Shown piece after piece: positions 3-48,690 of a stretch of DNA of 64,000 nt. Numbering within the stretch: position 1 is the first letter of the stretch; each line of letters starts with the position of its first letter. Under the pieces are notes generated by a model. It had not been told where the DNA came from. It made no database searches and saw nothing but the letters and a program-made list of their open reading frames with translations. Source of the DNA: Azotobacter salinestris. Its GTDB lineage: Bacteria > Pseudomonadota > Gammaproteobacteria > Pseudomonadales > Pseudomonadaceae. The position numbers were made by a program, and so were the translations under genes. The DNA lies in assembly GCF_009363155.1 (NCBI RefSeq), contig NZ_CP045302.1, positions 199,001 through 263,000 on the forward strand, given 5' to 3'.

Positions 3-1625
3 CCAGAGGTGTACGAGGCGCTGGTCGGCGACCGCGTGGTTTTTCTCGATGCCGCCACTGTGCTTGGTGACGATGCGGACGTCGAGGTGGTAAGGGCGAT
101 CAACCAGCTTACCGCGGCCGGTGCCAACCGCCTGGTGGTGAGCTTCGGCGGCGCGGCCTTCCTCGAGGTCGAGGAGCGCTTCCGCAAGGTCGTGCTGCGC
201 AAGTATCCGCGGCATCTGCTGGGCGCGGTGCCGGTGCTCTATGGCAGCGACCTGACGACGGATCGCGACGTGATTCGCCGCACCTGGACGGCGCTGATCA
301 ATTCCTTCCTGCATCCGGCGACGGAGGCATTCCTGTTCAATGCCGAGAACCGCCTGCGCGCCTATCGCACCAAGAACCCGCTGCTGATCTTCCGCAACGA
401 CGGCGATGCTTCGCGCGTCGCCAAGACGGTGGCGATCAAGACCTACAGCTCCGGTCCGCGCGGTGGCATGGAGGGCATGAAGTCCTTTGCCAAGCTCTAT
501 GGCCTGTCCGACGTGGTTGCTATCGACGTCGGCGGCACCACCACCGACATCGGCCAGTGCCTCAATGGTACGGTCGCGGAGGTGCAGCGCGGTCACGTCG
601 AAGGTATCAGCGTGTCCTTCCCGCTGTGCGAGATCATGAGCGCCGGCGCAGGCGGCAGTTCCATCTTCAAGGTGGTCAACAACCGCATTGTGATTGGGCC
701 GGAAAGCGTTGGTGCGGTCCCGGGGCCGGCGGCTTTCGGTCGTGGCGGCAAGGAGGCCACGATCACCGATGCCAGCCTGCTAAGCGGTATTTTCGACCCC
801 AAGTCCTATTTCGGCGGCGGTATGGCGCTGGATCTGGACCGGGCTGCCAGCGCAGTCACTTTCAACATCGCCAAGCCGCTGGGCATCGGCCTCGATGAGG
901 CGCTACTGCAGATGGCGCACGCCTACGAGGAGAAGATTGCTGTCGAACTGCACCGCTTCACCAAGGTATCAAAGGACACAGTAATGCTCGCGTTCGGTGG
1001 CGCCGGGCCGCTCAATGCCTGTGGCGTGGCAGAGAAGGCCGGCATCGACCGGGTTGCGGTGCCCAAGCTGGCGGCGGTGTTCAGTGCCTTCGGTATCGGC
1101 TCGTGCGACATCTCCCAGCGTTACGCGATCGCACTCGACGACCGCAGCACCAAAGGCGTGGGCGAGGCCCTGGCCGGCCTCAAGCTCAAGGCTGCGCGCG
1201 ACATGTTCGCCGAGGGCTTCGCTGAAGGTCAGTACGACATAGAAGCTTGGCTGGCGGGCGAACTGGGTGACGGCAGCGAGTTGCGCTACCCGATTGCCGA
1301 CGGAGTCGGCTACCCGGCCGAACTGGCGCACGCACGGACGGTGGAGTTGGGCCTGCGTGCCGTCAAGCCGCTGCGCGCCGAAGTCAGCAAGACCGCGCGC
1401 TTCGCCGAGAGCCAGGCCGCCAGCGCCATCGACACGCGCAAAGTGCTGACCCGCGGCAAGGGGCGCATCGACATCCCGGTCTACCGCCTGGCCGAACTGG
1501 CTCCGGGCGACCACGCAACCGGGCCCGCGATTCTCGAAGAAGACTTCTTTACGTGCCACGTGCTCGATGGCTGGAGTTTCGTCATCAGCGATGCGGGCGA
1601 CATCATGCTGAACAGGAAGGCCTGA
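3..1625 (+). CDS. Hydantoinase/oxoprolinase (HyuA) family ketone carboxylase subunit, ~70-kDa type, 5' partial
   Basis: Reading frame is open from the first bases of the window, so the N-terminus lies outside; at least 540 residues are present. The visible part has the HyuA-family second nucleotide-binding motif (AIDVGGTTTDIG, near residue 170 of the visible part) and a glycine-rich AGAGGSS stretch. Followed 3 nt later by a small zinc-type gamma subunit, then by a second HyuA-like and a HyuB-like gene and a ~32-kDa protein. That order and size pattern (about 70, 15, 76, 86 and 34 kDa) is what is known for acetophenone carboxylase of Aromatoleum. Acetone carboxylase has only three subunits. 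Substrate is inferred, not shown. Confidence 0.85.
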   Translation, partial: PEVYEALVGDRVVFLDAATVLGDDADVEVVRAINQLTAAGANRLVVSFGGAAFLEVEERFRKVVLRKYPRHLLGAVPVLYGSDLTTDRDVIRRTWTALINSFLHPATEAFLFNAENRLRAYRTKNPLLIFRNDGDASRVAKTVAIKTYSSGPRGGMEGMKSFAKLYGLSDVVAIDVGGTTTDIGQCLNGTVAEVQRGHVEGISVSFPLCEIMSAGAGGSSIFKVVNNRIVIGPESVGAVPGPAAFGRGGKEATITDASLLSGIFDPKSYFGGGMALDLDRAASAVTFNIAKPLGIGLDEALLQMAHAYEEKIAVELHRFTKVSKDTVMLAFGGAGPLNACGVAEKAGIDRVAVPKLAAVFSAFGIGSCDISQRYAIALDDRSTKGVGEALAGLKLKAARDMFAEGFAEGQYDIEAWLAGELGDGSELRYPIADGVGYPAELAHARTVELGLRAVKPLRAEVSKTARFAESQAASAIDTRKVLTRGKGRIDIPVYRLAELAPGDHATGPAILEEDFFTCHVLDGWSFVISDAGDIMLNRKA

Positions 1626-1628
1626 AAA

Positions 1629-2027
1629 ATGAAAGTTCTGATGACCGAATATCTGCGCATCGATCTCGATTCGAAAAAGTGGGAGTGCCGAGTGTGCGAC
1701 CACGAGATCGGGTCAGCGACCAAGAGCTACAAGGAAGGCATGCTCGTCTACAACCGCGATCCGCGCGAGATTCATCCGCCCATCATTGACCCTGAGAAGT
1801 ACCGCTTCACCTTCAGTCCCGACCCGGAGTGGGTGCGCATTCTTGAGTACTACTGCCCGCACTGCGGAACCATGGTCGAGACGGAATATGCCATTCCCGG
1901 CCATCCGCCACTGCACGACATGCAGCCGGACCTGCCGGCCCTGCGGGCGCAGTGGGCCAAGCGCGAGGAAATCGCGAAGCCGGTCGTGGGTCCCGAGGTA
2001 CTGGCCGATCAGGGCCACAATCACTAA
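1629..2027 (+). CDS. Acetone/acetophenone carboxylase small (gamma-type) zinc subunit
   Basis: A 132-residue protein whose gene starts 3 nt after the preceding stop, so probably translationally coupled. Two CxxC pairs are visible: Cys20/Cys23 (CRVC) and Cys76/Cys79 (CPHC), a typical four-cysteine zinc site as found in gamma subunits of acetone and acetophenone carboxylases. Length fits the 15-kDa subunit of the acetophenone enzyme. In this family the small subunit is part of the core complex with HyuA- and HyuB-like chains. Confidence is high for family, moderate for substrate. Confidence 0.85.
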   Translation: MKVLMTEYLRIDLDSKKWECRVCDHEIGSATKSYKEGMLVYNRDPREIHPPIIDPEKYRFTFSPDPEWVRILEYYCPHCGTMVETEYAIPGHPPLHDMQPDLPALRAQWAKREEIAKPVVGPEVLADQGHNH

Positions 2028-2084
2028 GCCACCGTCAACTGCCGGTAAGCATCCCTGCCCTTGATCCGGGCGGTGCCGGCGCAA

Positions 2085-2100
2085 AAGAATAATAAGGAGA
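2085..2100 (+). promoter_or_regulatory. Putative Crc/Hfq CA motif overlapping ribosome binding site of carboxylase subunit gene
   Basis: The leader reads AAGAATAATAAGGAGA, combining an AANAANAA Hfq/Crc target with a strong AAGGAG Shine-Dalgarno sequence 5 nt before the ATG at 2105. In pseudomonads such sites mediate catabolite repression of translation. Seen in sequence; function inferred. Confidence 0.45.
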
Positions 2101-2104
2101 TAAT

Positions 2105-4240
2105 ATGAGACGCGTTTCAGTCGATATCGGTGGCACGTTCACCGATTGTTTCGTGGTCTGGGATGGCAAGTACATCGAGGCCAAGGCTCTGACCACACAT
2201 CACAACCTCGCCCTGGGCTTCAATGAAGCTCTGAGCAAGGCCTATCACGACCTCGGCCTGGAGCTCGAGGAAATCCTGTCGCAGGTGGACTCCGTCCGCT
2301 ACGCCACCACGCTGGGAACCAATGCCCTGATCGAACACAAGGGGCCCAAGATCGGCATGCTGGTTACTGCCGGCTACGAAGCCACGGTGCCGTTGTCGCG
2401 TGCTCGCGGCTACGGCGAGGGGCTGGACAACCTGGGCCAGCAGGACATGCCCAACGCTCAGCGTCCCGACCCGTTGGTGCTGCCGCACATGATCCGCGGG
2501 GTGCGCGAGCGCGTAGACTTCCAAGGCGACCTGGTCATGCCGCTCGATGAGGACGACGTGCGCACTCAGATCCGCGAGCTGGTGGACCGCGGCGCCGAAA
2601 TCATCGTGGTAGCGCTAATCAATTCGGTGGTGAATCCGGCGCACGAGCAGCGCATCGAGGAGATCCTGCTCGAGGAATACCCGTCCCATCTGCTGGGGGC
2701 GATTCCGGTGGTCTTGTCTCATCAGGTGGCGGGCCGCAAGGGCGAGTACGTGCGGGCGACCTCGGCCATCGTCGATGGCTACCTGCACTCGACCATGTAC
2801 CACGCCCTATCCGCGCTCGAACAGAACCTGCGGGCCCATCGCTACGAGCAGCCGATGCTGGTCATTCACAACTCTGGCGGCATGGCCCAGCTCAATTCGA
2901 CGGACGCCCTGCAGACCATCCACTCCGGGCCGGTCTCCGGCATCGGAGCCTCTGAACACCTGGCCATGCAGTGCGACTTGGGCAACGTAGTAGCAACCGA
3001 CATGGGCGGCACCAGCTACGACATCGGCATTGTGGTTGAGGGTGGCATCAAGCACTACGACTTCAATCCGGTGATCGATCGCTGGCTGGTGTCGGTGCCC
3101 ATGGTGCACCTGGTGACCCTGGGTGCCGGCGGTGGCTCCATCGCCAGCTATGACCGCATGTACAACACGGTGAAGTGCGGGCCCGAGTCCGCCGGCTCCG
3201 ATCCCGGCCCGGCCTGCTACGACCGCGGTGGCATGCGTCCGACGGTGACCGACGCCGACCTGTTGCTGGGCTACCTGGACCCGGAGAACTATGCGGGCGG
3301 ATCGATTCCGCTCAATCCGCGTCGTGCAGCGGCTGCAGTCGAGGACGCGCTGTGCGACGACCTCGACTGCTCGGTCATCGAGGCCGCACTGCTGATCCGC
3401 GAGAAAGTGGACGACAGCATGGCCAACGGGCTCTTCACCGAGCTGCGCGCCCGCGGTTATGACCCCAAGGACTTCACCATGCTGGCTTACGGCGGCAATG
3501 GGCCGCTGCATTGTTGCGGCATCGCGCAAAACCTGAACATCGACAAGATTCTGGCGCCTCCGTTCAGCTCGGTGTTCTCGGCGGTCGGAGCCGGCAACAT
3601 GCACCAGCTCCACATCCACGAGACCTCGCTCTACATGGTGTTGTACGACTCGAACACCCGCCACCTGTTCGACGACTACGACCGCTTCAACGCCATCGTC
3701 GGCGAGCTGAAGGAGCAGGGTACCCAGGATCTGCTACGCCAGGGCGTGGCCCGCGAGGACATCTGCCACAACCTCGAACTGGATTTGCGCTACGGCAACC
3801 AGCTGGTGCAAACCACCGCGGTCATTCCCAAGCACGAGATACATGGTCCGGCGGACGTGCTGGCGATCATCGAGCAGTTCTCCAACGACTACGGCAAGCG
3901 TTTCGGCAAGGGTTCGCAGGCGCCGGAGGCTGGTATCCGCATCAACACCATTCGGGTTGCCGCGTTCGTTCGCCACGAGACAGTGCAGTTCGAGGATATC
4001 AAGCCGGTGCCAGTCGGACAGCGCAAGTCGCCGCCGCCGCCGTCGGCCACCCGCAAGTGCTATTTCGTCGGCTACGAGGGGGCATTCGAGACGCCAGTGT
4101 GGAGCCGAGGGGAGATCGAACCCGGGGTGCAGATCACCGGCCCCGCCATTATCGCCTCCGAAGTGACGACCTTCCTGGTCAATCCGGGCTGGAACTTCGT
4201 CGCCGCCAAGCAGGGTGCCTCCTGGTTCCTGCGGGCCTGA
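2105..4240 (+). CDS. Hydantoinase/oxoprolinase (HyuA) family ketone carboxylase subunit, ~76-kDa type (AcxA/ApcA-like)
   Basis: 711 residues, full length for a HyuA-family subunit. Residues 4-17 hold the phosphate-binding motif VDIGGTFTD and residues near 300 the second motif ATDMGGTSYDIG, followed by a glycine-rich loop (TLGAGGGSIAS). These form the actin-like ATP site used to phosphorylate ketone enol and/or bicarbonate in acetone and acetophenone carboxylases. It is the second HyuA-type gene in this operon; two different HyuA-type chains per enzyme is a mark of the acetophenone type, not of the three-gene acetone type. Preceded by a strong AAGGAG site. Confidence 0.88.
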   Translation: MRRVSVDIGGTFTDCFVVWDGKYIEAKALTTHHNLALGFNEALSKAYHDLGLELEEILSQVDSVRYATTLGTNALIEHKGPKIGMLVTAGYEATVPLSRARGYGEGLDNLGQQDMPNAQRPDPLVLPHMIRGVRERVDFQGDLVMPLDEDDVRTQIRELVDRGAEIIVVALINSVVNPAHEQRIEEILLEEYPSHLLGAIPVVLSHQVAGRKGEYVRATSAIVDGYLHSTMYHALSALEQNLRAHRYEQPMLVIHNSGGMAQLNSTDALQTIHSGPVSGIGASEHLAMQCDLGNVVATDMGGTSYDIGIVVEGGIKHYDFNPVIDRWLVSVPMVHLVTLGAGGGSIASYDRMYNTVKCGPESAGSDPGPACYDRGGMRPTVTDADLLLGYLDPENYAGGSIPLNPRRAAAAVEDALCDDLDCSVIEAALLIREKVDDSMANGLFTELRARGYDPKDFTMLAYGGNGPLHCCGIAQNLNIDKILAPPFSSVFSAVGAGNMHQLHIHETSLYMVLYDSNTRHLFDDYDRFNAIVGELKEQGTQDLLRQGVAREDICHNLELDLRYGNQLVQTTAVIPKHEIHGPADVLAIIEQFSNDYGKRFGKGSQAPEAGIRINTIRVAAFVRHETVQFEDIKPVPVGQRKSPPPPSATRKCYFVGYEGAFETPVWSRGEIEPGVQITGPAIIASEVTTFLVNPGWNFVAAKQGASWFLRA

Positions 4241-4285
4241 TAGCCACGGGATAACCATCGACCATATTTCATTTTCATACAGGAT

Positions 4286-6568
4286 TTGAACATGAACGAG
4301 ATCGCTACGCCTGTAAGGGCAAAAACGCCGAGCGCTGATGAGCTGGCGCTGATCCAGAAGTTCCTCAGCGACACCACGTTGTTCCTTGGGCCGGACCCGG
4401 AGATCATGCAGAACCACGATCTGATGCCCCGGACCGAGGCGGAGGACGAGGCCATCCGCAAGATGAGCGACGCCCACACAATCGCCAAGATCCGTGATCG
4501 CATCCAGGCCGGCTGCGACGAAGGCTATGAGATGGTGGAGCAAATGGGCGCAGCGCCTGGCGCCAAGTGGGGCGACGTCATCACGGGGGTGTATTCGGCC
4601 TCGGGCGATCTCGCCATCGCCAGTGCTGGCGGCGTGCTGATCTTCTCCGCTCTGGTGCACCACCCCATCAAGTTCATCATCAAGAACTGGATGAACGATC
4701 CCACCGTGGGGGTGCGCGAAGGCGACGGCTTCATCCATAACGACGCGCGCTATGGCAACGTGCATAACACTGACCAGAGCATGATCCTGCCGATTTTCCA
4801 CGAGGGGAGGTTGGTGTGCTGGGTAGCCTCCACCGTGCACGAGGGCGAGAACGGCGCGATCGAGCCGGGCGGCATGCCATCCATGGCTGAGAGCCCGTGC
4901 GATGAAGGCCTGAAAATGAGCCCCTTCAAGGTGGTGGAAAACTACGAAATCAAGCGAGACATCCTGACCTTCCTACAGAACTCGGTGCGCGAGCCCAAGC
5001 TGCAGTACGAGGACATGAAGGTCAAGCTCTTCGCTTGCCTGCGCATCAAGCAGCGGATCGAAGAAACGCTCAAGACCGACGGCCCGGACGCCATGGTTTC
5101 GACCCTGCGCCTGACCATGGAGAACGTCCGCGCCGAGGTGAAGCGCCGCATCAGCGAATGGCCGGACATGACGGTGCGCACCTACATCATCCAGGACTCG
5201 ACCCTGCGCGAAAACTGTGTGGTGAAGATTAACTGCAAGCTCACCAAAACCGGTGACCGGCTGATCTTCGACTTCCGCGGTTCGGCACCGGAATTCACCA
5301 ATCGACCGACCAACACCATCGTCGCCGGCCTCAAGGGCATGCTATCGCAGGTTTTCCTGTGCTACGTGTGGCCGGATCTACCGCGCGGCCAGGCGGCCTT
5401 CGCACCGATCGAGGTAATCACCGATCCGCACTCGATCGTGAACTGCTCCTATGATGCGCCAAACTCGCAAAGCCTGATGTCGATCTTCACCGGCTTCACC
5501 GCCGGCCAGCACGCAGTGGCAAAGTTCCTTTACAGTTGCTCGGAGAAATACACGAAGGTACATGCTCCGACCTTTAACATGATCAATACCTTCATTTGGG
5601 GCGGAGTGAGCCAGCACGGCGAGACCCTGGGCAACCTCTGTGCAGACCTGAACGGAATGGGGGGCGGCGCCAGGGTGGACCGCGATGGCGAGCACGCCTT
5701 GGCACCAATCTTCGCCACCATGGCGGACATCGGTGAGCAAGAGCTGAACGAGGAGGACGTGCCTTTCCTACAACTAGTGTCGAAGAAGATGACGCGCGAC
5801 GCTATCGCGCCAGGCAAGTATCGCGGTGGCCAGGGTTACACGATGATCGTGGCGACCAAGGACAGCGAGCAATGGGGCTTCATGACTACCTGCCAGGGCG
5901 CCAAGATCCCGCCAATACAGGGTCTGTTCGGCGGCTATGCATGCGGTACCTATCCGCTCTCCAAAGTTAAGGGCGTGGATGTGTATGACGTGCTGCTCGA
6001 GACGCCGGAAAAGTTCAAGCACTCGATCGAGGAGATCATGAACGAGCAGCCCTTCGAAGGGGCGAGCTACACCACCCACCACATGGGCATGGGCTTCGAG
6101 ATCTCCAAACGCGGCGAACTGTTCATGATCTCGCAAGGCGCCGGTGCCGGTTACGGCGATCTGCTGGAGCGCGACCCGGCGGGTGTCATTCGCGACATCG
6201 AGGAGGGCCTGATCTCGCAGGACGTCGCCGAGCGACTGTACAAGGTCAAGTTCGACCCGCTGACGCTGGCGATCAACCACGAGGCCACCGCCGCGGCCCG
6301 CGATACCGAGCGCAAGGCGCGTCTGGCCCGCGGCGTGCCTTATGCCGAGTTTGTCAAGTCGTGGAACAAGCCGACACCACCATCTTACCTGCAGTACTTC
6401 GGCTGCTGGGGCGATGATATCGACAAGCTCTATATGGGAGGCGCCGACAAGTTCCGCGCTGCCGACGAGCCCAAGCCCAACTACATGGCGCATCCGAAGG
6501 ATGTGCGCATCGCCGAACTCGAGGCACGCCTGGCGGCACTCGGCGCGATGGGAGGTGAAAAGCAATGA
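4286..6568 (+). CDS. Hydantoinase B/oxoprolinase family ketone carboxylase subunit (~86 kDa, AcxB/Apc HyuB-like)
   Basis: 760 residues, matching the HyuB-like subunit of acetone/acetophenone carboxylases, which holds the metal-dependent carboxylation site. The N-terminal third shows the family pattern HHPIKFIIKNW...GDGFIHNDARYGNVHNTDQ (residues about 130-165), and the middle GDRLIFDFRGSAPEFTNRPTN. The stop overlaps the next ORF's ATG by 4 nt (ATGA), so the two are coupled. Expected reaction: ATP-dependent carboxylation of a methyl ketone to a 3-oxoacid in the cytoplasm. Confidence 0.88.
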   Translation: MNMNEIATPVRAKTPSADELALIQKFLSDTTLFLGPDPEIMQNHDLMPRTEAEDEAIRKMSDAHTIAKIRDRIQAGCDEGYEMVEQMGAAPGAKWGDVITGVYSASGDLAIASAGGVLIFSALVHHPIKFIIKNWMNDPTVGVREGDGFIHNDARYGNVHNTDQSMILPIFHEGRLVCWVASTVHEGENGAIEPGGMPSMAESPCDEGLKMSPFKVVENYEIKRDILTFLQNSVREPKLQYEDMKVKLFACLRIKQRIEETLKTDGPDAMVSTLRLTMENVRAEVKRRISEWPDMTVRTYIIQDSTLRENCVVKINCKLTKTGDRLIFDFRGSAPEFTNRPTNTIVAGLKGMLSQVFLCYVWPDLPRGQAAFAPIEVITDPHSIVNCSYDAPNSQSLMSIFTGFTAGQHAVAKFLYSCSEKYTKVHAPTFNMINTFIWGGVSQHGETLGNLCADLNGMGGGARVDRDGEHALAPIFATMADIGEQELNEEDVPFLQLVSKKMTRDAIAPGKYRGGQGYTMIVATKDSEQWGFMTTCQGAKIPPIQGLFGGYACGTYPLSKVKGVDVYDVLLETPEKFKHSIEEIMNEQPFEGASYTTHHMGMGFEISKRGELFMISQGAGAGYGDLLERDPAGVIRDIEEGLISQDVAERLYKVKFDPLTLAINHEATAAARDTERKARLARGVPYAEFVKSWNKPTPPSYLQYFGCWGDDIDKLYMGGADKFRAADEPKPNYMAHPKDVRIAELEARLAALGAMGGEKQ

Positions 6569-7431
6569 GCCAACATCTCGCCGACGATCTGCCCGGCGGC
6601 ACGGGCGGTGGACGCCTGCGGGTGTGGCTGAAGGCTTCGGCCTACACCCGAAGGCTGTTGTTGGGCACAGGAGGCGACCCTTGGTTGAGTGCGCCGCAGT
6701 ACCTGGCCTACTTCAGTCAGGCCCAGGGCCTGCTGCGACCGGACGTGGCGGTGGTGGAAGTCGGCGAGCTGTTCGATTCCTGGCTGTCTCGCCACCCGGA
6801 GGTGGCAGCGGAGCTGGGGTCGAAAAGGCGCCTGTCCTTCCCGCTGCGCAAGCTGCTGGAGCAGGAAGAGCCACGCCAGATCCTGGCCGAGGTCGTGGAG
6901 GCGGTCATCGCCAACCTGCGCGGCCAGACGCCACTGGTGCTGGCCATGCCGTCGCCCAAGCACTGGCTGCATCATGCCAATATGCTGGCCGGGCGGATCG
7001 AGGTCGAACTAGAGCCGGACGGGATCGAGGATGCCGCCATGTACATGGCTGACCTGCTGCGCTCCGTTTCCGCCTACCCGGTGGGTGGTGTGCTGCTGGA
7101 GGAGCAGCCCGCCGATAGCAGCATGGGCGTGACCGACGTCGAACGCTATCGCCCGCTGATCAACGTGGCCAAACACTATCGTTGGTCGCTGGCCTTGCGG
7201 CCGCACGGTGGCTCGGCCTTGGCATCGCCCGCGCTGGCCGAGTTCGATGCGGTGATCTCGCCGACCATCCGGGTGCCGAAGCCGGCATCAAGCGGCGTGG
7301 ATGTGGGCGCCGCTCTGTGGCATGGCGGCAGCTTGCCGGTCCTCGACCAAGGGCAGTTCTACTTCGTCGAGATCCCCGCTGAGCAGCAGCCAGAGTTCGT
7401 ACTGGAAAGTCTCGTCCGGCTGCGGGCTTGA
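6565..7431 (+). CDS. Acetophenone carboxylase-type fifth subunit (~32 kDa)
   Basis: 288 residues starting within the ATGA overlap with the HyuB-like gene. I recognise no catalytic motif. Size and position match the 34-kDa fifth subunit of acetophenone carboxylase, which is needed for activity together with the four-subunit core. The N-terminus carries a WLKASAYTRRLLLGTGG segment and the body is rich in hydrophobic beta-strand-like stretches (VDVGAALWHGGSLPVLDQGQFYFVE near the C-terminus). Its presence is the strongest reason to place the operon with Apc-type rather than Acx-type carboxylases. Confidence 0.7.
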   Translation: MSQHLADDLPGGTGGGRLRVWLKASAYTRRLLLGTGGDPWLSAPQYLAYFSQAQGLLRPDVAVVEVGELFDSWLSRHPEVAAELGSKRRLSFPLRKLLEQEEPRQILAEVVEAVIANLRGQTPLVLAMPSPKHWLHHANMLAGRIEVELEPDGIEDAAMYMADLLRSVSAYPVGGVLLEEQPADSSMGVTDVERYRPLINVAKHYRWSLALRPHGGSALASPALAEFDAVISPTIRVPKPASSGVDVGAALWHGGSLPVLDQGQFYFVEIPAEQQPEFVLESLVRLRA

Positions 7432-7434
7432 TCT

Positions 7435-7474
7435 GTCGGGCAAGCGTCGCGGCGCGCCGTGACGCCTGCCCGAC
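7435..7474 (+). terminator. Terminator-like hairpin after the carboxylase operon
   Basis: Arms GTCGGGCA-A-GCGTC and GACGC-C-TGCCCGAC pair with one A/C mismatch around a 12-nt loop, 3 nt after the last carboxylase gene. The following tract is only moderately T-rich (cttcttgt). It suggests the carboxylase operon ends here and the CoA-transferase genes have their own promoter. Confidence 0.6.
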
Positions 7475-7647
7475 CTTCTTGTCACCCTTTGCCCTCCCCG
7501 GTTTCCCATGCTCTCTGCCTCCTTAGGTATGGAGCGTGTGAAGGCCCTGCAGCTGTACCGCTAGGCATTGAGCGAGTGAAGGGCCTGCAGTTGCAGGTGC
7601 CTGATACCGCGGGAGGGACTTTTTAGGGTAGGCAGTGGCATTAAAAC

Positions 7648-7664
7648 TGGGCTGTACCTTTGCT
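7648..7664 (+). promoter_or_regulatory. Candidate sigma-54 promoter upstream of CoA-transferase genes
   Basis: The stretch TGGGCTGTACCTTTGCT has GG and GC spaced by exactly 10 nt, and TTTGC at the -12 element, about 80 nt upstream of the first CoA-transferase codon. The -24 element is imperfect (GGGCTG rather than TGGCAC). The rest of the 7475-7746 gap holds an imperfect repeat of GTGAAGG-CCTGCAG (around 7537 and 7576) and nothing else recognisable. Confidence 0.35.
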
Positions 7665-7723
7665 CTTAAAGGCACTGCTCTCAACTTGACATCGCTCTCC
7701 GCCAGCGGCGCTGCGGAAGCAGG

Positions 7724-7733
7724 ACAACAACAA
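7724..7733 (+). promoter_or_regulatory. Putative Crc/Hfq CA motif, scoA leader
   Basis: ACAACAACAA directly before the AGAGGC ribosome binding region of the gene starting at 7747. It matches the AANAANAA target of the Hfq/Crc catabolite-repression complex. Confidence 0.5.
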
Positions 7734-7746
7734 GAGGCAGAACAGC

Positions 7747-8445
7747 ATGGCCGGACTCGACAAGCGCGTGAACACCTACGAAGAAGCCCTGGCCGGGCTC
7801 ACCGACGGCATGACCGTCCTGGCCGGCGGCTTCGGTCTGTGCGGCATCCCGGAAAACCTGATCGCCGAGATCCGCCGCCGCCAGGTCAAGGGGCTGACGG
7901 TGGTCTCCAACAACTGCGGCATCGACGGCTTCGGCCTGGGCGTGCTGCTCGAGGACCGGCAGATCCGCAGGATGATCGCCTCCTACGTCGGCGAGAACGC
8001 CCTGTTCGAGCGCCAGCTGCTCGACGGCGAGCTGGAGGTCGAACTGACCCCGCAGGGCACCCTGGCCGAGAAGCTGCGCGCCGGCGGCGTGGGCATACCC
8101 GCCTTCTACACCGCGACCGGCTACGGCACCCCGGTCGCCGAGGGCAAGGAAGTGCGCGAGTTCAACGGCCGGCACTACATCCTCGAAGAGGCGATCAGCG
8201 GCGACTTCGCCCTCGTCAAGGGCTGGAAGGCCGACCACTTCGGCAACGTCGTCTACCGCCACACCGCGCAGAACTTCAACCCGGTGGTGGCCAGCGCCGG
8301 GCGGATCACCGTGGTCGAGGTGGAGGAGATCGTCGCGCCGGGCGAGCTGGAACCCAGCCAGATCCACACCCCCGGCATCTACGTCGATCGCGTCATCCTC
8401 GGCCGCTTCGAGAAGCGCATCGAAAAGCGCACCGTGCGCGCCTGA
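7747..8445 (+). CDS. scoA: 3-oxoacid CoA-transferase subunit A
   Basis: 232 residues of the class I CoA-transferase alpha family, with the family glycine motif [13 protein letters not shown] near residues 27-39. Followed 33 nt later by the beta subunit. Such heterodimers move CoA from succinyl-CoA (or acetyl-CoA) to acetoacetate and related 3-oxoacids. Next to a ketone carboxylase, its likely job is activation of the 3-oxoacid made by carboxylation; known acetophenone operons use an ATP-dependent CoA ligase for this step instead. Confidence 0.9.
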
Positions 8446-8478
8446 TCCTGCCCACCCGACCGAACAAGAGAGACTGCC

Positions 8479-9135
8479 ATGGCACTTTCCCGCGAACAGA
8501 TGGCCCAGCGCGTGGCGCGCGAGCTGAAAGACGGCTACTACGTCAACCTGGGGATCGGCATCCCCACCCTGGTGGCCAACTACGTGCCCGAGGGCATGGA
8601 CGTGATGCTGCAGTCGGAGAACGGCCTGCTCGGCATGGGCGCCTTCCCCAGCGAGGCCGAGGTCGACGCCGACATGATCAACGCCGGCAAGCAGACGGTG
8701 ACCGCGCGTCCCGGCGCCTCGATCTTCTCCTCGGCCGAATCCTTCGCGATGATCCGCGGCGGCCATGTCGACCTGACGGTGCTCGGCGCCTTCGAGGTGG
8801 ACGTCGAGGGCAACATCGCCTCCTGGATGATCCCCGGCAAGCTGGTCAAGGGCATGGGCGGCGCCATGGACCTGGTGGCCGGCGCCGACAACATCATCGT
8901 CACCATGACCCACGCCTCCAGGGACGGCGAGTCCAAGCTGTTGGCGCGCTGCTCGCTGCCGCTGACCGGCGCCGGCTGCATCCGCAAGGTGCTCACCGAC
9001 CTGGCCTACCTGGAGATCGAGAACGGCGCCTTCGTGCTCAGGGAGCGCGCGCCGGGGGTGAGCGTCGAGGAAATCGTCGCCAGGACCGCCGGCAGGCTGG
9101 TGGTGCCCGGGCAGGTGCCGGAAATGACTTTCTAA
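8479..9135 (+). CDS. scoB: 3-oxoacid CoA-transferase subunit B
   Basis: 218 residues, full length. The catalytic glutamate of class I CoA-transferases is visible in SENGLLGMG (Glu47), preceded by GIGIPTLVANY. Paired with the alpha subunit just upstream and read from the same transcript. A good ribosome binding site (AAGAGAGAC) lies before the ATG. Confidence 0.9.
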   Translation: MALSREQMAQRVARELKDGYYVNLGIGIPTLVANYVPEGMDVMLQSENGLLGMGAFPSEAEVDADMINAGKQTVTARPGASIFSSAESFAMIRGGHVDLTVLGAFEVDVEGNIASWMIPGKLVKGMGGAMDLVAGADNIIVTMTHASRDGESKLLARCSLPLTGAGCIRKVLTDLAYLEIENGAFVLRERAPGVSVEEIVARTAGRLVVPGQVPEMTF

Positions 9136-9198
9136 CATCCGCCCAGCCAAAACCGGGTGATGTATCCGGAAACCAGGGTTTTGCCCTGGTTTCTGCAT

Positions 9199-9303
9199 TT
9201 TAGAAGCGCACCTCTTCTGCGTCGGCCAGCAGATGCTGTCGGGCCATCCACAGGTTCGATAAGGCGAACAGCGTCGCCCATTATGAAGTGTTCTTGGCCA
9301 CTC
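9199..9303 (-). pseudogene. IS5-family transposase 3'-end remnant
   Basis: About 105 bp closely matching the 3' end of the complete IS5 transposase gene at 47645 (same order of blocks: GCGCACCTCT, CCATCCACAG, GCGAACAGCGTC, GTGTTCTTGGCCA). No complete reading frame remains. It sits between the CoA-transferase genes and an IS630 copy, evidence of repeated insertion and deletion here. The rest of 9136-9359 shows nothing else. Confidence 0.75.
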
Positions 9304-9359
9304 ATTATTGTTTTCTCGTTGATCGGCACAACAGCTCAGAAATACCCCCGACCGGCGGC

Positions 9360-10513
9360 TAGTGCAGTTTCATAGATGTAGTTATGAAAAATGCGGCGTC
9401 GGGCGATGCTATGGCCCATGAAAGCACCTTTATTCGTTCGCCCTTTGAGTACCCAGGAACGGCAGGCCCTGCAAGCGGGTCTGCGCGCTCGTGAGGCCTT
9501 CACGCTGCGACGCTGCCAGATCCTGCTGGCCAGCGCCGACGACAAGACCGCCACGGAAATCGCCGCCCTGTTCGGCTGCGCCACGCAAACCGTACGCAAC
9601 ACCCTGCGGGCCTTTGCCGCCGAGGGGGTGTCTTGCCTGACGGAGAAGTCGCATCGGCCCAAACGTGTCCGTCCCTTGCTTGCGGGCACGCAGGCCGAGC
9701 GCTTGCGCACCTTGCTGCACCGCAGCCCCCGCGATTTCGGCAAGCCCACCCGCTTGTGGACCTTGAGCCTGGCCGCCGAAGTGGCCTTCGAGCAGGGGCT
9801 GACCGAACGGCAGCTGAGCCATGAGTCGATCCGCCAGGCGCTGATACGCCTGGGTGTGGGTTGGAAGCGGGCCAAGACCTGGATTACCAGCCCGGATCCC
9901 CACTATGCGCGCAAAAAAGCGACGCGACTGGCTGATCGAACTGGCCACAACGCACCCGGACTGGGTGCTGGGTTTCCAGGACGAGGTCTGGTGGAGTCGT
10001 TTTGCGCGCCCGTCCCTGAAGGCCTGGAGCGCGGGTCCGGCCCTGCGCCTGCAGCAGTTGCCGGCGGATCCGCAGGATGCCGAACCCAAGGCGCTGAGCT
10101 GCTATGGCCTGCTGCGCGCCGACACGGGGGCAGATGCTGCTGCGCTTCGTCAAGGGCCGCCCGGTCAGCCAGGTGACCGAGGACTTCCTGGCGTGGGTCT
10201 GCGAGCGCCTGGCGAGCGAAGGGAAGAAGGCGCTGCTGATGATCTGGGACAACGCCAGTTGGCATATCAGCTGGATCGGGGCGCACAACCGCCGGGCCAG
10301 GGCCGAGGGTGGCGTACGGATCGTAACCTGCCGCCTGCCGAGCAAGAGCCCCTGGCTGAACCGGATCGAGCCCAGTTGGGTGCATGGCAAGCGGGCGATC
10401 CATGAACCCGAACGCCCATTGACGATCGCCGAGGTGATGGAGCGAGTCTGCACCTAATTACGGTTGTGAGCAGCTCCCACCGCTTGAACAGAATGTTGGT
10501 TGAAACTGCACTA
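9360..10513 (+). mobile_element. IS630-family element A, degenerate transposase
   Basis: Bounded by the inverted repeat CTAGTGCAGTTTCA (from 9359) and TGAAACTGCACTAG (ending 10514), with a TA duplication at 9360-9361 and 10512-10513 as expected for IS630/Tc1-mariner elements. Inside is a transposase gene broken by two frameshifts. The element sits in the 3' part of the FadB-like gene on the other strand. Confidence 0.85.
9391..10457 (+). pseudogene. IS630-family transposase, two frameshifts
   Basis: The protein can be followed through three successive frames: an N-terminal helix-turn-helix part (to about 9920), a middle part with the first catalytic Asp (GFQDEVWWSRF, about 9855-10110), and a C-terminal part with the second Asp and the Glu (LMIWDNASWH and PWLNRIEPSWVHGKR, 10104-10457). 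Both shifts go the same direction and neither lies on a clear slippery run, so I treat it as decay, not programmed frameshifting. Confidence 0.8.
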
Positions 10514-10514
10514 G

Positions 10515-11453
10515 GTGGGCGCAGAAGTCGCTCCTCAATTCCGGGCTTTTTTGCGTGCCAACTGATCGCTGAGGAACAGTTCGACCATGGCATGGGCGAC
10601 ATCGGATTTTCGCCAGTGCCGCGAAAGTGCGCGCCTCGAGCTCCAAGGCCTCGTCCAGTGATAGCACAGCCTGTCGGACGACTGCTGTGAGGATAGCCTC
10701 TGGCGCCGGATAGTGAGGGTCAAGCTTCCCTGCGTGGTGCTGCTGCACAGCAGCCAGCAACGCCTGGCTCTCCGGAGTCACACGGGGGGGCTGCTGCTTG
10801 CGGGCGCGGTAGGCGGCGACCGGCAGCTCGCCATTGGCTGCCATGCGTAGCAGGTTCAGCGCAGATCCGCGTAGCTTGTCGGCAGCGACAATACGGTCGA
10901 CCGCACCTTGCTCCAGCGCCAGGGCTGAACTATTCGGGGTGCCGGAGAGCAGCCAGTCGAGCGCCGCCTCGGCACCGATTAGCCGGCTCAGGCGCACGGT
11001 GCCGCCACAGCTGGGGCAAACGCCCAGCTTCACCTCAGGCAGGCCGACCCGAGCGTCTACCGCCAGGACCCGGAAGTCGGCCGCCAGCGCTAGCTCGAAG
11101 CCGCCACCCAGCGCCAGGCCGTTCACCGCTGCCACGGTCGGGAACGGCAGATTTTCCAGGGCACTGAACAGTGCTTGTCCCCGGCGCACCCACCCCAGTA
11201 GCTCACCTTCACTGCGGGAGAAAGCTGCGGTGAACTCGGTGACGTCGGTGCCGATGCCGAATACGGGCTTGGCGCTGGCGATCAACAAGCCCTCGACCTC
11301 ATGGCTGTGGCGTTCAAGCAGTCGGACGACCTCTGCCAGCTCGCCTAGAGTCAGGCTGTTCAGCTTGTTAACGGAGGAGCCCTGCAGGTCGAGGATCAGC
11401 TCGACCAGTCCATCTTCCAGTGATTTGAGGCGTATCGCCTTGCCGTTGTACAT
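10515..11453 (-). pseudogene. FadB-like enoyl-CoA hydratase/3-hydroxyacyl-CoA dehydrogenase, N-terminal part only, truncated by IS630
   Basis: Residues 1 to about 270 match the N-terminal crotonase domain of pseudomonad FadB (YNGKAIRLKSLEDGLVELIL; GGGFELALAADFRV oxyanion hole; GLPEVKLGVCPSCGGTVRLSRL). Normal FadB is ~715 residues with a dehydrogenase domain, which is absent. Near 10620 the frame changes: the expected continuation (SDVAHAMVELFLSDQLARKKA) is found in another frame, and the IS630 end follows at 10513. It lies third in the alcohol dehydrogenase-thiolase operon. Its leader has an AAAAACAATAAGGAG Crc/Hfq-like motif (around 11465-11479). Confidence 0.8.
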
Positions 11454-11585
11454 GCCGTGAGCTCCTTATTGTTTTTGGTTCGCGGCCGCTCGGGCCGCAC
11501 GCTTTCGGACCGTCGCCGCGCGGGCGACGGCCAGGTCGAAACATTCGGGAAGCGGGCGCGGCCACGCCGGACCGCGCCCGGCCGG

Positions 11586-12773
<1,188 letters not shown>

Positions 12774-12870
12774 AACGATCTCCACATTGATAATCGGGTT
12801 TTTGGCTCCGTGCTTAGGAGTCTCCGGAGAGGCTGAGAGGGGGCGCCTTCTTAATCAAAACCGAAAGGGG

Positions 12871-13935
12871 TCAGTCGAAATGAATGACTGGCTTGATGAT
12901 TCCATCTGCCTTGGTAGTCATCATGTCCAGCGCCTTGTGGACTTCAGAAAACTTAAAATGGTGAGTCGTAAGTTTGGTTGGATCAATTCGTCCATTCTGA
13001 ATTAGTCGCAGTAGGCGTTTCATTCGCTCGCTACCGCCAGGGCAGAGGAGGGTGGTAATGGTTTTTTCTGCCATGCCAACTCCCCAGTCGAGTCGAGGAA
13101 TATTGATGTGGTCGCCGTGGCTAAAGTAGCCAATATTTGAAATTATACCGCCAGGACGAGCCACCTTTATACAGTTCTCAAAGGTTGATTGAGTGCCGAG
13201 AGCATCCATGGCAGCATCGGTACCTTGGCCATTAGTCAGTCTAAGTATTTCGGTAATCGGATCTTTCTCTTTGAAGTTGATCGTTATATCTGCACCGTAG
13301 AACTTGGCAAGCTCAAGTCGAGATGGGACACAGTCAACTGCAATCACAAGGCCGGCTCCGAGCATGCGAGTGCCTGCTACAGCCATCAGTCCAACCGGCC
13401 CCATTCCAAAAATAACTCCAGAACCGCCTAGGGGGATACGCGCATTTTCAGCACCTTTAAACCCTGTTGACATCATGTCGGTTGTGTAGCAAGCGGCTTC
13501 ATCTGATACCTCATCGGGGATTAGCGCTAGGTTGGCTTCAGCATCATTTAAATGGAAGTATTCGGCCATGTTGCCGTCTTTTTGAATTGTAAACTTATAA
13601 CCGCCCAGCATCGTGCCACATTGGGATGTGAAGCCCCGTTGGCAGTTCTCGCATTTGTAGCAGGGTGTAATTGCATTTACAGCAACACGGTCGCCAATTT
13701 TAAATCCTTTTACAGCGCTGCCCAATTCATGAATCACGCCTACCGCTTCGTGACCCAAGATTCTATCGGAGATATCTCCTAGTCCACCAGAAACCGTGTG
13801 AACGTCTGATGTGCAGACCATGGCAATAGTTGTTTTGATAATTGCGTCATTGGGCCCTGCGGTTGGGATAGGCCGCTCAAGAATTGCAACGTCATTTAAG
13901 CCGCGCATCACCAGTGCTTTCATTGTTTTGCTCAT
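12871..13935 (-). CDS. Zinc-dependent secondary-alcohol (isopropanol-type) dehydrogenase
   Basis: 354 residues, similar throughout to isopropanol dehydrogenases of the Clostridium/Thermoanaerobacter type (TSDVHTV, GHEAVGVIHELGS, YFHLNDAEANLALIP, TTDMMSTGFKGAE). Catalytic zinc ligands Cys (MVCTSD), His (GHEA) and Asp (TDMMSTGF) are present. Unlike those enzymes it has a CYKCENCQRGFTSQC structural-zinc lobe. After the Rossmann motif GMGPVGL the second strand ends AVDC; an Asp here usually favours NAD over NADP. The gene is more AT-rich than its neighbours, hinting at transfer. First gene behind a sigma-54 promoter. Likely oxidises a secondary alcohol to the ketone used by the carboxylase. Confidence 0.88.
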   Translation of the reverse strand: MSKTMKALVMRGLNDVAILERPIPTAGPNDAIIKTTIAMVCTSDVHTVSGGLGDISDRILGHEAVGVIHELGSAVKGFKIGDRVAVNAITPCYKCENCQRGFTSQCGTMLGGYKFTIQKDGNMAEYFHLNDAEANLALIPDEVSDEAACYTTDMMSTGFKGAENARIPLGGSGVIFGMGPVGLMAVAGTRMLGAGLVIAVDCVPSRLELAKFYGADITINFKEKDPITEILRLTNGQGTDAAMDALGTQSTFENCIKVARPGGIISNIGYFSHGDHINIPRLDWGVGMAEKTITTLLCPGGSERMKRLLRLIQNGRIDPTKLTTHHFKFSEVHKALDMMTTKADGIIKPVIHFD

Positions 13936-14017
13936 TTCTCACCATGAAAATTGAGATATGTGTTTGCTGTTGTGTTTTTAATTGTGACTGAAGTTTATAG
14001 ATGTGTTTGATATAGGC

Positions 14018-14035
14018 TTGCATATGTTGTGCCAA
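14018..14035 (-). promoter_or_regulatory. Sigma-54 (-24/-12) promoter of the alcohol dehydrogenase operon
   Basis: On the minus strand TTGGCACAACATATGCAA matches TGGCAC-N5-TTGC with GG and GC exactly 10 nt apart. It lies about 85 nt upstream of the start codon at 13935. Acetone carboxylase operons in other bacteria are known to be sigma-54/AcoR-type activated, so this fits the pathway. Confidence 0.75.
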
Positions 14036-14217: not shown

Positions 14218-14400
14218 TAGGTGTTTGGTCCCGGAGAGTCCTGGTCTATGGTATGAGCCTCTCTCGGAGGATGATCCATGGCTCAGGTTCTTCACAAACG
14301 CGCCACGACCACGCCCGCCATTCGAGCAGAAATACAGCGATCGCAGGATTCGATCGCGACGCTGAGCCGGCGCTACAACCTCAACCCCAAGACGGTTCGC
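14218..14400 (+). pseudogene. IS481-family element 5' stub (left arm)
   Basis: Begins with the terminal sequence TAGGTGTTTGGTCCCGG and contains the start of an IS481-type transposase (ATG at 14278; MAQVLHKRATTTPAIRAE..., about 41 codons up to LNPKTVR). It stops at the TA target of the IS630 element at 14402. The same stub occurs inverted on the other side of that IS630 element. Confidence 0.7.
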
Positions 14401-14401
14401 C

Positions 14402-15457: not shown

Positions 15458-15629
15458 GGGGGTTGAGGTGGTAGCGCCTGCTCAGCGTCGCGATCGAATC
15501 CTGCGATCGCTGTATTTCTGCTCGAATGGCGGGCGTGGTCGTGGCGCGTTTGTGAAGAGCCTGAGCCATGGATCATCCTCCGAGAGAGGCTCATACCATA
15601 GACCAGGACTCTCCGGGACCAAACACCTA
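15458..15629 (-). pseudogene. IS481-family element 5' stub (right arm, inverted)
   Basis: Near-identical inverted copy of the stub at 14218-14400, coding on the minus strand from ATG at about 15571 (MAQALHKRATTTPAIRAE). It ends in LNP just before the IS630 TA, nine bases shorter than the left arm. Its outer end overlaps the stop codon of the neighbouring LysR gene. Confidence 0.7.

Positions 15630-45939: not shown

Positions 45940-48690
<2,751 letters not shown>

What the first reader, a model, noticed from the sequence alone, without database searches (positions are those of the whole stretch)
3..14035. Complete sec-alcohol/methyl-ketone oxidation route built on an Apc-type five-subunit carboxylase
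Five consecutive genes have the number, order and sizes of acetophenone carboxylase (two HyuA chains, HyuB, zinc gamma chain, ~32-kDa chain). Next to them are an isopropanol-type dehydrogenase, a 3-oxoacid CoA-transferase and a thiolase. The set could turn 2-propanol, another 2-alkanol or 1-phenylethanol into acyl-CoAs. The alcohol dehydrogenase and acetoacetate-type CoA-transferase point to aliphatic ketones, while the carboxylase points to aromatic ones, so the real substrate range may be new.
Basis: partly seen in the sequence, partly recalled or inferred. Interest (0 to 1): 0.75.

Follow-up and report, generated by a model that had tools for sequence, protein, structure and literature searches.

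The report
Five-subunit ketone carboxylase gene cluster
A soil bacterium carries a five-part enzyme, related to one that fixes carbon dioxide onto the aromatic ketone acetophenone, but set among genes of the acetone type, which suggests an uncharacterised enzyme for consuming small methyl ketones and the matching alcohols.

Summary
Five genes encode alpha', zinc gamma, alpha, beta and epsilon chains of an acetophenone-carboxylase (Apc)-type enzyme; alpha' starts 312 bases upstream of the window. Trees place the chains with Apc, not with hydantoinases. The fifth chain shows no credible sequence similarity to ApcE, yet its predicted fold finds the solved ApcE structure first in the PDB. The enzyme is nevertheless not Apc: it scores far under the curated Apc cut-offs, keeps 2 of 7 proposed pocket residues and has a longer beta chain. 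It belongs to a separate, patchily spread clade. Its surroundings resemble acetone-carboxylase (Acx) loci: AcxR-like sigma-54 activator, sigma-54 promoter, 3-oxoacid CoA-transferase, and in some relatives an acx-type outer-membrane/MMPL module. 39 of 80 relatives also carry a CobW GTPase, not seen in the Acx and Apc loci examined. The isopropanol-type dehydrogenase recurs near the clade in A. beijerinckii, Zoogloea and Geobacter, so the sec-alcohol entry is credible; with a BktB thiolase and an enoyl-CoA hydratase it forms a separate block between insertion elements. Most likely this is an aliphatic methyl-ketone carboxylase with a two-kinase mechanism. Substrate and activity are inferred, not shown. 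New variant of a known kind.

The parts
3..1625 (+). HyuA-type chain alpha' (ApcA-like second kinase); the gene starts 312 bases upstream of the window (645 aa)
   Evidence: PF01968; best PDB hit Apc alpha subunit 5l9w_b 2.6e-86; groups with Apc alpha' chains, SH-aLRT 100
1629..2027 (+). gamma chain, zinc-binding (132 aa)
   Evidence: PF08882 2.2e-40; CxxC..CxxC in 81 of 81 called clade gamma chains
2105..4240 (+). HyuA-type chain alpha, putative ketone kinase (711 aa)
   Evidence: best PDB hit 5l9w_B 2.8e-163; ASKHA motifs and R/KERiDsxG-like fingerprint
4292..6568 (+). HyuB-type chain beta with conserved metal-site residues (758 aa)
   Evidence: PF02538; 5l9w_A 3.2e-86; D95/H158/D161/H183 aligned with acetone carboxylase E89/H150/D153/H175
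6565..7431 (+). epsilon chain (288 aa), URO-D-like TIM barrel by prediction; start overlaps the beta stop by 4 bases
   Evidence: no Pfam, NCBIfam or PDB sequence hit; AlphaFold pLDDT 92.7, pTM 0.92; Foldseek top 3 of PDB = ApcE 9fou, best 1.7e-8
7747..8445 (+). 3-oxoacid CoA-transferase subunit A
   Evidence: TIGR02429 251.9 bits, cut-off 128.5
8479..9135 (+). 3-oxoacid CoA-transferase subunit B
   Evidence: TIGR02428 326.6 bits, cut-off 243.55
9363..10514 (.). IS630-type insertion (ends approximate), transposase ORF 9391-10176 matching only part of the IS630 model; inserted at the 3' end of the hydratase gene
   Evidence: NF033545 73 bits, under its cut-off of 100; the A. beijerinckii contig L177 is contiguous across this point; ends located
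10458..11453 (-). enoyl-CoA hydratase like the FadB N-terminal domain; stand-alone (321 aa) in A. beijerinckii, last codons altered here by the insertion
11586..12785 (-). beta-ketothiolase, BktB-like
   Evidence: NF006552 618.9 bits, cut-off 565; best PDB hits 9bwk and BktB 4nzs
12871..13935 (-). secondary alcohol dehydrogenase of the NADP isopropanol dehydrogenase type
   Evidence: 7f3p, 1ykf, 1kev relatives, E about 1e-100 to 1e-93; 80-97% orthologues in 4 of 31 other genomes tested
14218..15629 (.). insertion element with 171-bp terminal inverted repeats and a DDE_3 transposase, closing the dehydrogenase block

Best explanation
The cluster encodes an ATP-dependent, biotin-free ketone carboxylase of Apc architecture that most likely carboxylates aliphatic methyl ketones (acetone homologues such as butanone or 2-pentanone, possibly acetone). 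Proposed order: the isopropanol-type dehydrogenase oxidises a 2-alkanol to the methyl ketone; alpha phosphorylates the enol of the ketone and alpha' phosphorylates bicarbonate; beta, with a conserved His/Asp/His/Asp set, joins them with epsilon helping to close the complex; the 3-oxoacid is given CoA by the ScoAB-type transferase; the BktB-like thiolase cleaves it to an acyl-CoA plus acetyl-CoA. Expression would be driven by an AcxR-like sigma-54 activator through a -24/-12 promoter. Shown: gene content, family, predicted fold and conservation. Inferred: every reaction, the substrate, the regulation, and the link of the dehydrogenase block to the carboxylase in this strain.
For: Apc-type core: PDB hits, trees, motifs, epsilon fold. 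Ketone carboxylase rather than hydantoinase: the His equivalent to H150 of acetone carboxylase is present in 102 of 102 aligned clade, Acx, Apc and third-group beta rows (two clade rows are duplicates) and is Gln in 3 of 3 Hyd rows. Acetone-type context: by score the closest non-clade regulator is within about 13 kb of an Acx locus in 10 of 11 genomes (43-59% identity; other full-length paralogues listed are 40% or less); MMPL protein 69-75% identical to acx-linked copies but 33% to the apc-linked one, also YCF48, DUF1302 and DUF1329. CoA-transferase of the 3-oxoacid type; an acetyl-CoA-synthetase-like ligase follows the genes in Cupriavidus necator N-1. Acx-type gamma in 11 of 27 clade-bearing genomes (60) against 6 of 398 sampled Pseudomonadota. 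Dehydrogenase recurrence. Sigma-54 site TTGGCATACCGCTTGC 167 bases before alpha'; two strict patterns in 27 and 26 of 75 clade upstream regions against a shuffled mean of 0.09 each.
Against: The enzyme groups with Apc, whose one characterised member uses an aromatic ketone. The alpha pocket fits neither Apc (2 of 7 residues) nor Acx. The genome already has a canonical Acx locus, so acetone may be taken care of. The accessory MMPL module is neither in the window's locus nor found in the window genome (best 28% over about 150 residues), and four MMPL copies at 56-64% identity have no shown Acx link, one lying about 10 kb from a third-group locus. The module follows 5 of 11 Acx loci only. The CoA-transferase is absent from the A. 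vinelandii locus and subunit A is called in 18 of 80 loci; 44 of 80 show no activating enzyme in the stretch held. The sigma-54 patterns were found before 2 of 9 Acx operons. The window-type dehydrogenase lies inside 1 of the 80 collection loci as fetched.
Confidence: 0.6

Rival explanations
1. It is an aromatic (acetophenone-like) ketone carboxylase, with the dehydrogenase acting on 1-phenylethanol-type alcohols.
For: Core architecture and trees are those of Apc; epsilon fold is ApcE-like; 29 of 80 loci carry an AMP-binding ligase, the activation type of the apc-bal operon.
Against: Apc equivalog scores far under cut-off; Phe281 of the proposed Apc pocket is Ile in 82 of 85 clade alpha chains, as in 8 of 9 Acx; regulator and accessory genes are acx-type, while two-component systems are predicted for apc; 3-oxoacid CoA-transferase; isopropanol-type dehydrogenase.
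Confidence: 0.15
2. It is simply a second acetone carboxylase, redundant with or differing in affinity from Acx.
For: acx-type regulator and accessory genes; 16 of 27 clade-bearing genomes show no Acx-type gamma, so it could stand in for Acx.
Against: 11 of 27 genomes keep both; pocket residues differ from Acx at 5 of 7 positions in the majority residue; the associated BktB-like thiolase, and in A. beijerinckii a hydratase and ETF-domain genes, suggest longer acyl-CoA products (89, 99, 100; the chain-length preference of BktB is recalled).
Confidence: 0.2
3. The dehydrogenase-thiolase-hydratase block has nothing to do with the carboxylase; insertion elements placed it there.
For: It is bounded by insertion elements in the window; it is absent from the A. 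vinelandii locus; its side relative to the carboxylase differs between the window (CoA-transferase side) and A. beijerinckii (porin side); in Z. dura it is on another contig than the carboxylase.
Against: Near the clade in 4 of the 5 genomes that hold it: window, A. beijerinckii (about 12 kb from alpha' by contig overlap), a Zoogloea MAG (about 13 kb) and a Geobacter MAG (about 10 kb). All 5 holders carry the clade, but 29 of the 32 genomes tested do.
Confidence: 0.2

Closest known systems
Acetophenone carboxylase ApcABCDE of Aromatoleum aromaticum (PDB 5l9w, 9fou)
   Same: Five genes in the same order; two HyuA kinases, zinc gamma, HyuB, epsilon of the same fold; close in trees together with one further Apc-like group
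   Different: 30-39% identity of the three large chains; equivalog scores far under cut-offs; 2 of 7 pocket residues; beta 758 against 684 aa; regulator and accessory genes of acx type; CobW partner in many relatives
Acetone carboxylase AcxABC (Xanthobacter, Aromatoleum; PDB 5svb, 5m45)
   Same: AcxR-like sigma-54 activator, 3-oxoacid CoA-transferase near some loci, in some relatives the same YCF48/MMPL/DUF1302/DUF1329 module; similar beta length; H150/D153/H175 metal residues
   Different: Acx has one kinase chain and no epsilon; gene order differs; E89 is Asp in the clade; separate clade in trees
NADP-dependent isopropanol dehydrogenases (1ykf, 1kev, 7f3p)
   Same: Full-length match at about 1e-100 to 1e-93
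   Different: A 43-44% paralogue lies elsewhere in two of the Azotobacter genomes; substrate of this one untested
Third Apc-like group (L167, L168)
   Same: alpha', gamma, alpha, beta plus AMP-binding ligase and SCP2-type thiolase
   Different: A 267-272 aa gene lies between gamma and alpha; a TetR-family regulator gene in front; distinct clade

Membership tests
Acetophenone carboxylase (Apc) | apcABCD(E) gene number and order alpha', gamma, alpha, beta, epsilon | tested here: met
Acetophenone carboxylase (Apc) | Two ASKHA kinases (alpha and alpha') with adenosine and phosphate motifs; fingerprint in alpha only | tested here: met
   three motifs in 84, 82 and 85 of 85 alpha and 78 of 78 alpha'; fingerprint in 70 of 85 alpha and 0 of 78 alpha'
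Acetophenone carboxylase (Apc) | Epsilon subunit of the ApcE fold | tested here: met
   Foldseek top 3 = 9fou, on a predicted model; no sequence-level match
Acetophenone carboxylase (Apc) | NCBIfam equivalog cut-offs for ApcA-D | tested here: not met
   window part of alpha' 269.9/1250, gamma 124.7/250, alpha 585.3/1500, beta 328.1/1500 bits
Acetophenone carboxylase (Apc) | Proposed Apc alpha substrate-pocket residues | tested here: not met
   2 of 7 conserved (residues)
Acetophenone carboxylase (Apc) | Acetophenone + HCO3- + 2 ATP to benzoylacetate + 2 ADP | not testable with these tools
   needs enzyme assay
Acetone carboxylase (Acx) | Three genes acxABC, single kinase, no epsilon | tested here: not met
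Acetone carboxylase (Acx) | Metal ligands E89, H150, D153, H175 in the HyuB-type chain | tested here: inconclusive
   H, D, H kept in 89 of 89 clade rows; E89 is Asp in 88 of 89 (1 gap)
Acetone carboxylase (Acx) | Phylogenetic placement with Acx | tested here: not met
   the 9 Acx rows used form their own clade, 100/100
Acetone carboxylase (Acx) | AcxR-like sigma-54 activator | tested here: met
Hydantoinase/oxoprolinase (Hyd) | Two-gene hydAB; placement with Hyd | tested here: not met
   H150 equivalent is Gln in 3 of 3 Hyd rows
NADP isopropanol dehydrogenase | Full-length homology to the solved enzymes | tested here: met

The most novel reading that the evidence does not exclude
A separate clade of Apc-architecture enzymes has been recruited to aliphatic methyl-ketone (C4 and longer) catabolism inside acx-type regulons, with a dedicated CobW GTPase (and in some hosts a ZIP transporter) that supplies its metal; the two-kinase plus epsilon mechanism would then not be a speciality of aromatic ketones, and hosts such as Azotobacter, Xanthobacter and Aromatoleum diolicum would divide ketones between Acx and this enzyme.
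Probability: 0.4. Interest if true: 0.65.

Novelty: new variant of a known kind. Interest (0 to 1): 0.5.

Why it matters
PMC5214803 (2017) states that in the Apc branch only one enzyme was biochemically characterised and that functions of more distant members must be regarded with caution, and it links the mechanistic differences between Acx and Apc to aliphatic against aromatic ketones. This clade combines the Apc-type machine with an acetone-type gene setting, so it makes that argument directly testable, and it occurs in Azotobacter vinelandii, a laboratory organism. The CobW link gives a lead on how these carboxylases obtain their metal, and the epsilon model extends the ApcE fold to a family whose epsilon sequences gave no match to ApcE.

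Tried and rejected
I first took the hydratase gene for a fragment of fadB cut by IS630; the A. beijerinckii contig shows a stand-alone 321-aa gene, so I dropped that. I first noted three ORFs at window 49452-52568 as identical copies; they are not. Epsilon by sequence: Pfam over 48 members gave only scattered weak matches (best 0.0054 in one member), the PDB sequence profile 0 hits, hhalign against a two-sequence ApcE profile probability 10%; only the fold search worked. Paper searches on Apc/Acx, butanone or other ketone carboxylases, Azotobacter with acetone carboxylase or 2-alkanols, CobW with acetone carboxylase, and ApcE gave nothing on this clade's function; I looked at listings and at passages of six papers only, and the A. 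aromaticum acetone/butanone paper is not held. So 'uncharacterised' rests on an open-licence library. I could not test whether dehydrogenase, CoA-transferase and carboxylase share a transcript; the strict sigma-54 patterns were not found before scoA, the dehydrogenase, the regulator or cobW. Two carboxylase-family PDB library looks beyond Foldseek were not possible.

Genes in relatives were called with my own composition-based caller, not a standard one, and families by BLAST clustering; the Acx locus L107 and part of L054 were badly called. Many loci are cut by contig ends; related genomes are not independent; L021/L026 and L023/L024 are the same loci twice. The beta tree used 47 chosen rows and the alpha tree 53 of 82 gathered rows; Acx loci L107 and L165 were left out of both. 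Both trees carry long-branch warnings, for the Halorientalis row L020 above all. The epsilon alignment used the window chain and 47 of 66 collection chains. Upstream shuffles were of two-base blocks, and the sigma-54 consensus was recalled.
Full report
WHAT IS THERE. The window is G000:C2:199001-263000 of a 5.29-Mb genome in three contigs. Five genes follow one another on the + strand: HyuA-type alpha' (L003:9688-11625, 645 aa, starting 312 bases upstream of the window), zinc gamma (1629-2027), HyuA-type alpha (2105-4240), HyuB-type beta (4292-6568) and a 288-aa chain (6565-7431, overlapping the beta stop by 4 bases). Then come a two-gene 3-oxoacid CoA-transferase (7747-9135), an IS630 element, and on the other strand an enoyl-CoA hydratase, a BktB-like thiolase and a secondary alcohol dehydrogenase. 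Upstream of the window are a GAF/sigma-54/Fis activator (L003:4709-6742), a CobW GTPase (L003:1521-2969) and an OprD porin.

WHO IT IS. The genus is Azotobacter: the same-genus genomes G002 and G003 have contig lengths equal to those of A. beijerinckii DSM 378 and A. vinelandii CA in a named collection. The cluster is present in 3 of the 4 genomes of the genus searched, the window's included (91-96% identity in beta), and not in G001. Plasmid relatives include Neorhizobium petrolearium (89%), Rhodococcus (52-55%), Cupriavidus necator N-1 (52%) and the archaeon Halorientalis (42%). In an even sample of 398 Pseudomonadota it occurs in 4 including the window genome, so it is rare and patchy, as expected of a horizontally moved catabolic cluster (inference).

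IT IS APC-TYPE, BUT NOT APC. Each large chain finds its matching Apc subunit first in the PDB. In a tree of 47 beta chains the 31 clade rows form one group (100/98), which joins Apc and a third Apc-like group (91/87, not a starred branch), apart from 9 Acx and 3 Hyd rows. In the alpha tree of 53 rows the alpha' chains of the clade, Apc and the third group sit together (SH-aLRT 100, quick method). Both trees carry long-branch warnings. The fifth chain has no Pfam, NCBIfam or PDB sequence match and no credible profile match to ApcE, but its AlphaFold model (pLDDT 92.7, pTM 0.92, 48 sequences) finds three ApcE chains of 9fou as the best three of the PDB (1.7e-8 to 3.0e-7, 14-16% identity), then uroporphyrinogen decarboxylases; other TIM-barrel enzymes start at 6.5e-4. 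That 9fou is the ApcE of the reference locus L156 was confirmed. So all five subunits are accounted for. Against membership in Apc itself: 269.9/1250, 124.7/250, 585.3/1500 and 328.1/1500 bits against the equivalog cut-offs (the first for the window part of alpha' only), a beta chain of 758 aa against 684 in Apc and 772-776 in Acx, and only Pro285 and Ile333 kept of seven proposed Apc pocket residues; the clade has Thr, Ile, His, His and Leu at the others, in 82 to 85 of 85 chains (pocket residues from PMC5214803).

CATALYTIC RESIDUES. The metal ligands of acetone carboxylase (E89, H150, D153, H175; PMC5543143, passages) align with D95, H158, D161 and H183 of the window beta chain. H150 is His in 89 of 89 clade, 9 of 9 Acx, 2 of 2 Apc and 2 of 2 third-group rows and Gln in 3 of 3 Hyd rows; D153 and H175 are kept in all 105 rows; E89 is Glu in 9 of 9 Acx rows and Asp in 88 of 89 clade rows (1 gap), Apc, third group and Hyd. 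The gamma CxxC..CxxC pair is in 81 of 81 called chains.

SURROUNDINGS POINT TO ACETONE-TYPE METABOLISM. Among the 80 loci: sigma-54 activator 46, CobW 39, SCP2-type thiolase 28, DUF1302 porin 23, DUF1329 19, CoA-transferase subunits 18 and 17, AMP-binding ligases 17 and 12 (two clusters), YCF48-like 12, MMPL 12, ZIP transporter 8, a zinc alcohol dehydrogenase cluster 7 (families of representatives). 36 of 80 show some CoA-activating enzyme and 31 a thiolase; 44 of 80 show no activating enzyme within the stretch held. The YCF48/MMPL/DUF1302/DUF1329 set also follows acxABC in 5 of 11 Acx loci (Aromatoleum and Methyloversatilis) at 53-76% identity, while the true apc loci have only 21-33% homologues. 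A genome-wide check in 11 genomes gave clade-linked MMPL copies at 78-98%, acx-linked ones at 69-75%, four others at 56-64% (one about 10 kb from a third-group locus) and the rest at 35% or less, the apc-linked copy being 33%; the two Azotobacter genomes in the set have no real match. In an 18-row tree the acx copies nest among the clade copies (quick method). The regulator behaves likewise: in 10 of 11 genomes the closest non-clade homologue by score is within about 13 kb of an Acx locus (43-59%; in G001 it is on another contig than Acx), other full-length paralogues listed are 40% or less, partial ones up to 48% (positions). By contrast two-component systems are predicted to control apc (PMC4729919, passages). 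A sigma-54 -24/-12 match (TTGGCATACCGCTTGC) lies 167 bases before alpha'; two strict patterns occur in 27 and 26 of 75 clade upstream regions against a shuffled mean of 0.09 each; they were seen before 2 of 9 Acx, 0 of 2 Apc and 0 of 2 third-group operons. Eleven of 27 clade-bearing genomes also have an Acx-type gamma chain (158 bits or more) against 6 of 398 in the phylum sample; hosts of both may simply share a lifestyle, and the 27 were picked from near relatives. In C. necator N-1 an acetyl-CoA-synthetase-like ligase follows the genes.

COBW. A CobW GTPase is called in 39 of 80 clade loci and in none of 11 Acx, 2 Apc and 2 third-group loci of 11 to 20 kb, one of which (L107) was badly called. 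It is under the ZigA cut-off, so its metal is unknown. A role in supplying the carboxylase metal is inference from linkage and family.

THE ALCOHOL BLOCK. The dehydrogenase is a full-length relative of the NADP isopropanol dehydrogenases 7f3p, 1ykf and 1kev. Orthologues of 80-97% occur in 4 of the 31 other genomes tested, the next homologues being 44% or less; all five holders also carry the carboxylase clade, but so do 29 of the 32 tested. In the Geobacter MAG it follows carboxylase, CobW, CoA-transferase and thiolase genes (L066); in a Zoogloea MAG it is about 5.6 kb from the thiolase of the locus, with a second zinc alcohol dehydrogenase between (L175). In A. beijerinckii it forms a row with thiolase, hydratase and two ETF-domain genes, the second perhaps incomplete, on contig C67 (L177), whose end overlaps the end of the carboxylase contig C95 exactly over 306 bases, which puts it about 12 kb from alpha'. 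In Z. dura it is on another contig than the carboxylase, and it is absent from the A. vinelandii locus.

LOCAL HISTORY. Compared with A. beijerinckii, the window strain has 1.1 kb with an IS4/5-type transposase where the relative has a 3.8-kb stretch with an SCP2-type thiolase and an AMP-binding ligase between CobW and the activator, and an extra 2.4 kb with transposase genes between activator and alpha'. That the window strain lost the pair is inference; a 58% thiolase and a 55% ligase match (the latter with one in-frame stop) lie side by side about 24 kb from its Acx locus. The IS630 element changed the last codons of the hydratase. The dehydrogenase block ends at a second element with 171-bp inverted repeats. 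So the set in the window is a workable but rearranged version of the locus.

MECHANISM AND STATUS. Taken together I favour an aliphatic methyl-ketone carboxylase with the two-kinase mechanism proposed for Apc in PMC5214803 (sections 5-7 read). Ketones longer than acetone are favoured because Acx is already present and because the linked thiolase is BktB-like, with hydratase and ETF genes in A. beijerinckii; the preference of BktB for longer substrates is recalled, not tested. Nothing here shows activity. Papers: PMC5214803 abstract and three sections; PMC5543143, PMC10865871, PMC8084838, PMC3621897 and PMC4729919 passages; all others search listings only.

Noticed in passing
L167:6465-17884 and L168:6613-17894: A third Apc-like carboxylase family: TetR-family regulator, alpha', gamma, a 267-272 aa chain of unknown family, alpha, beta, AMP-binding ligase, a ~90-aa protein (OB-fold domain PF01796 in L167) and an SCP2-type thiolase.
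   Followed up: partly
window 49452-52568: Three 248-aa DDE_3 transposase ORFs with the same first 60 residues at exact 1185-base spacing, not identical throughout: probably a tandem row of insertion elements.
   Followed up: partly
window 47645-48625 and L003:8093-9073: A 326-aa transposase ORF with the same beginning occurs in front of the carboxylase promoter (a second, broken copy beside it) and again 48 kb into the window.
   Followed up: partly
L036:14518-15744, L016:16526-17824: In rhizobial relatives an rpoN (sigma-54) gene sits in the carboxylase locus (7 of 80 loci).
   Followed up: no
window 32813-34087 and 59758-61020: Two OprD-family porin genes further along the window.
   Followed up: partly
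L031:13282-14022, L046:13147-13947: ZIP-family metal transporter genes next to the carboxylase in Zoogloea, Acidovorax and Hydrogenophaga among others (8 of 80 loci), in line with a metal-supply role of the neighbourhood.
   Followed up: partly
L018:15868-20795: In Cupriavidus necator N-1 pBB1 the carboxylase genes are followed by an acetyl-CoA-synthetase-like ligase (AMP-binding with ACAS_N) and a large LuxR-type regulator.
   Followed up: partly
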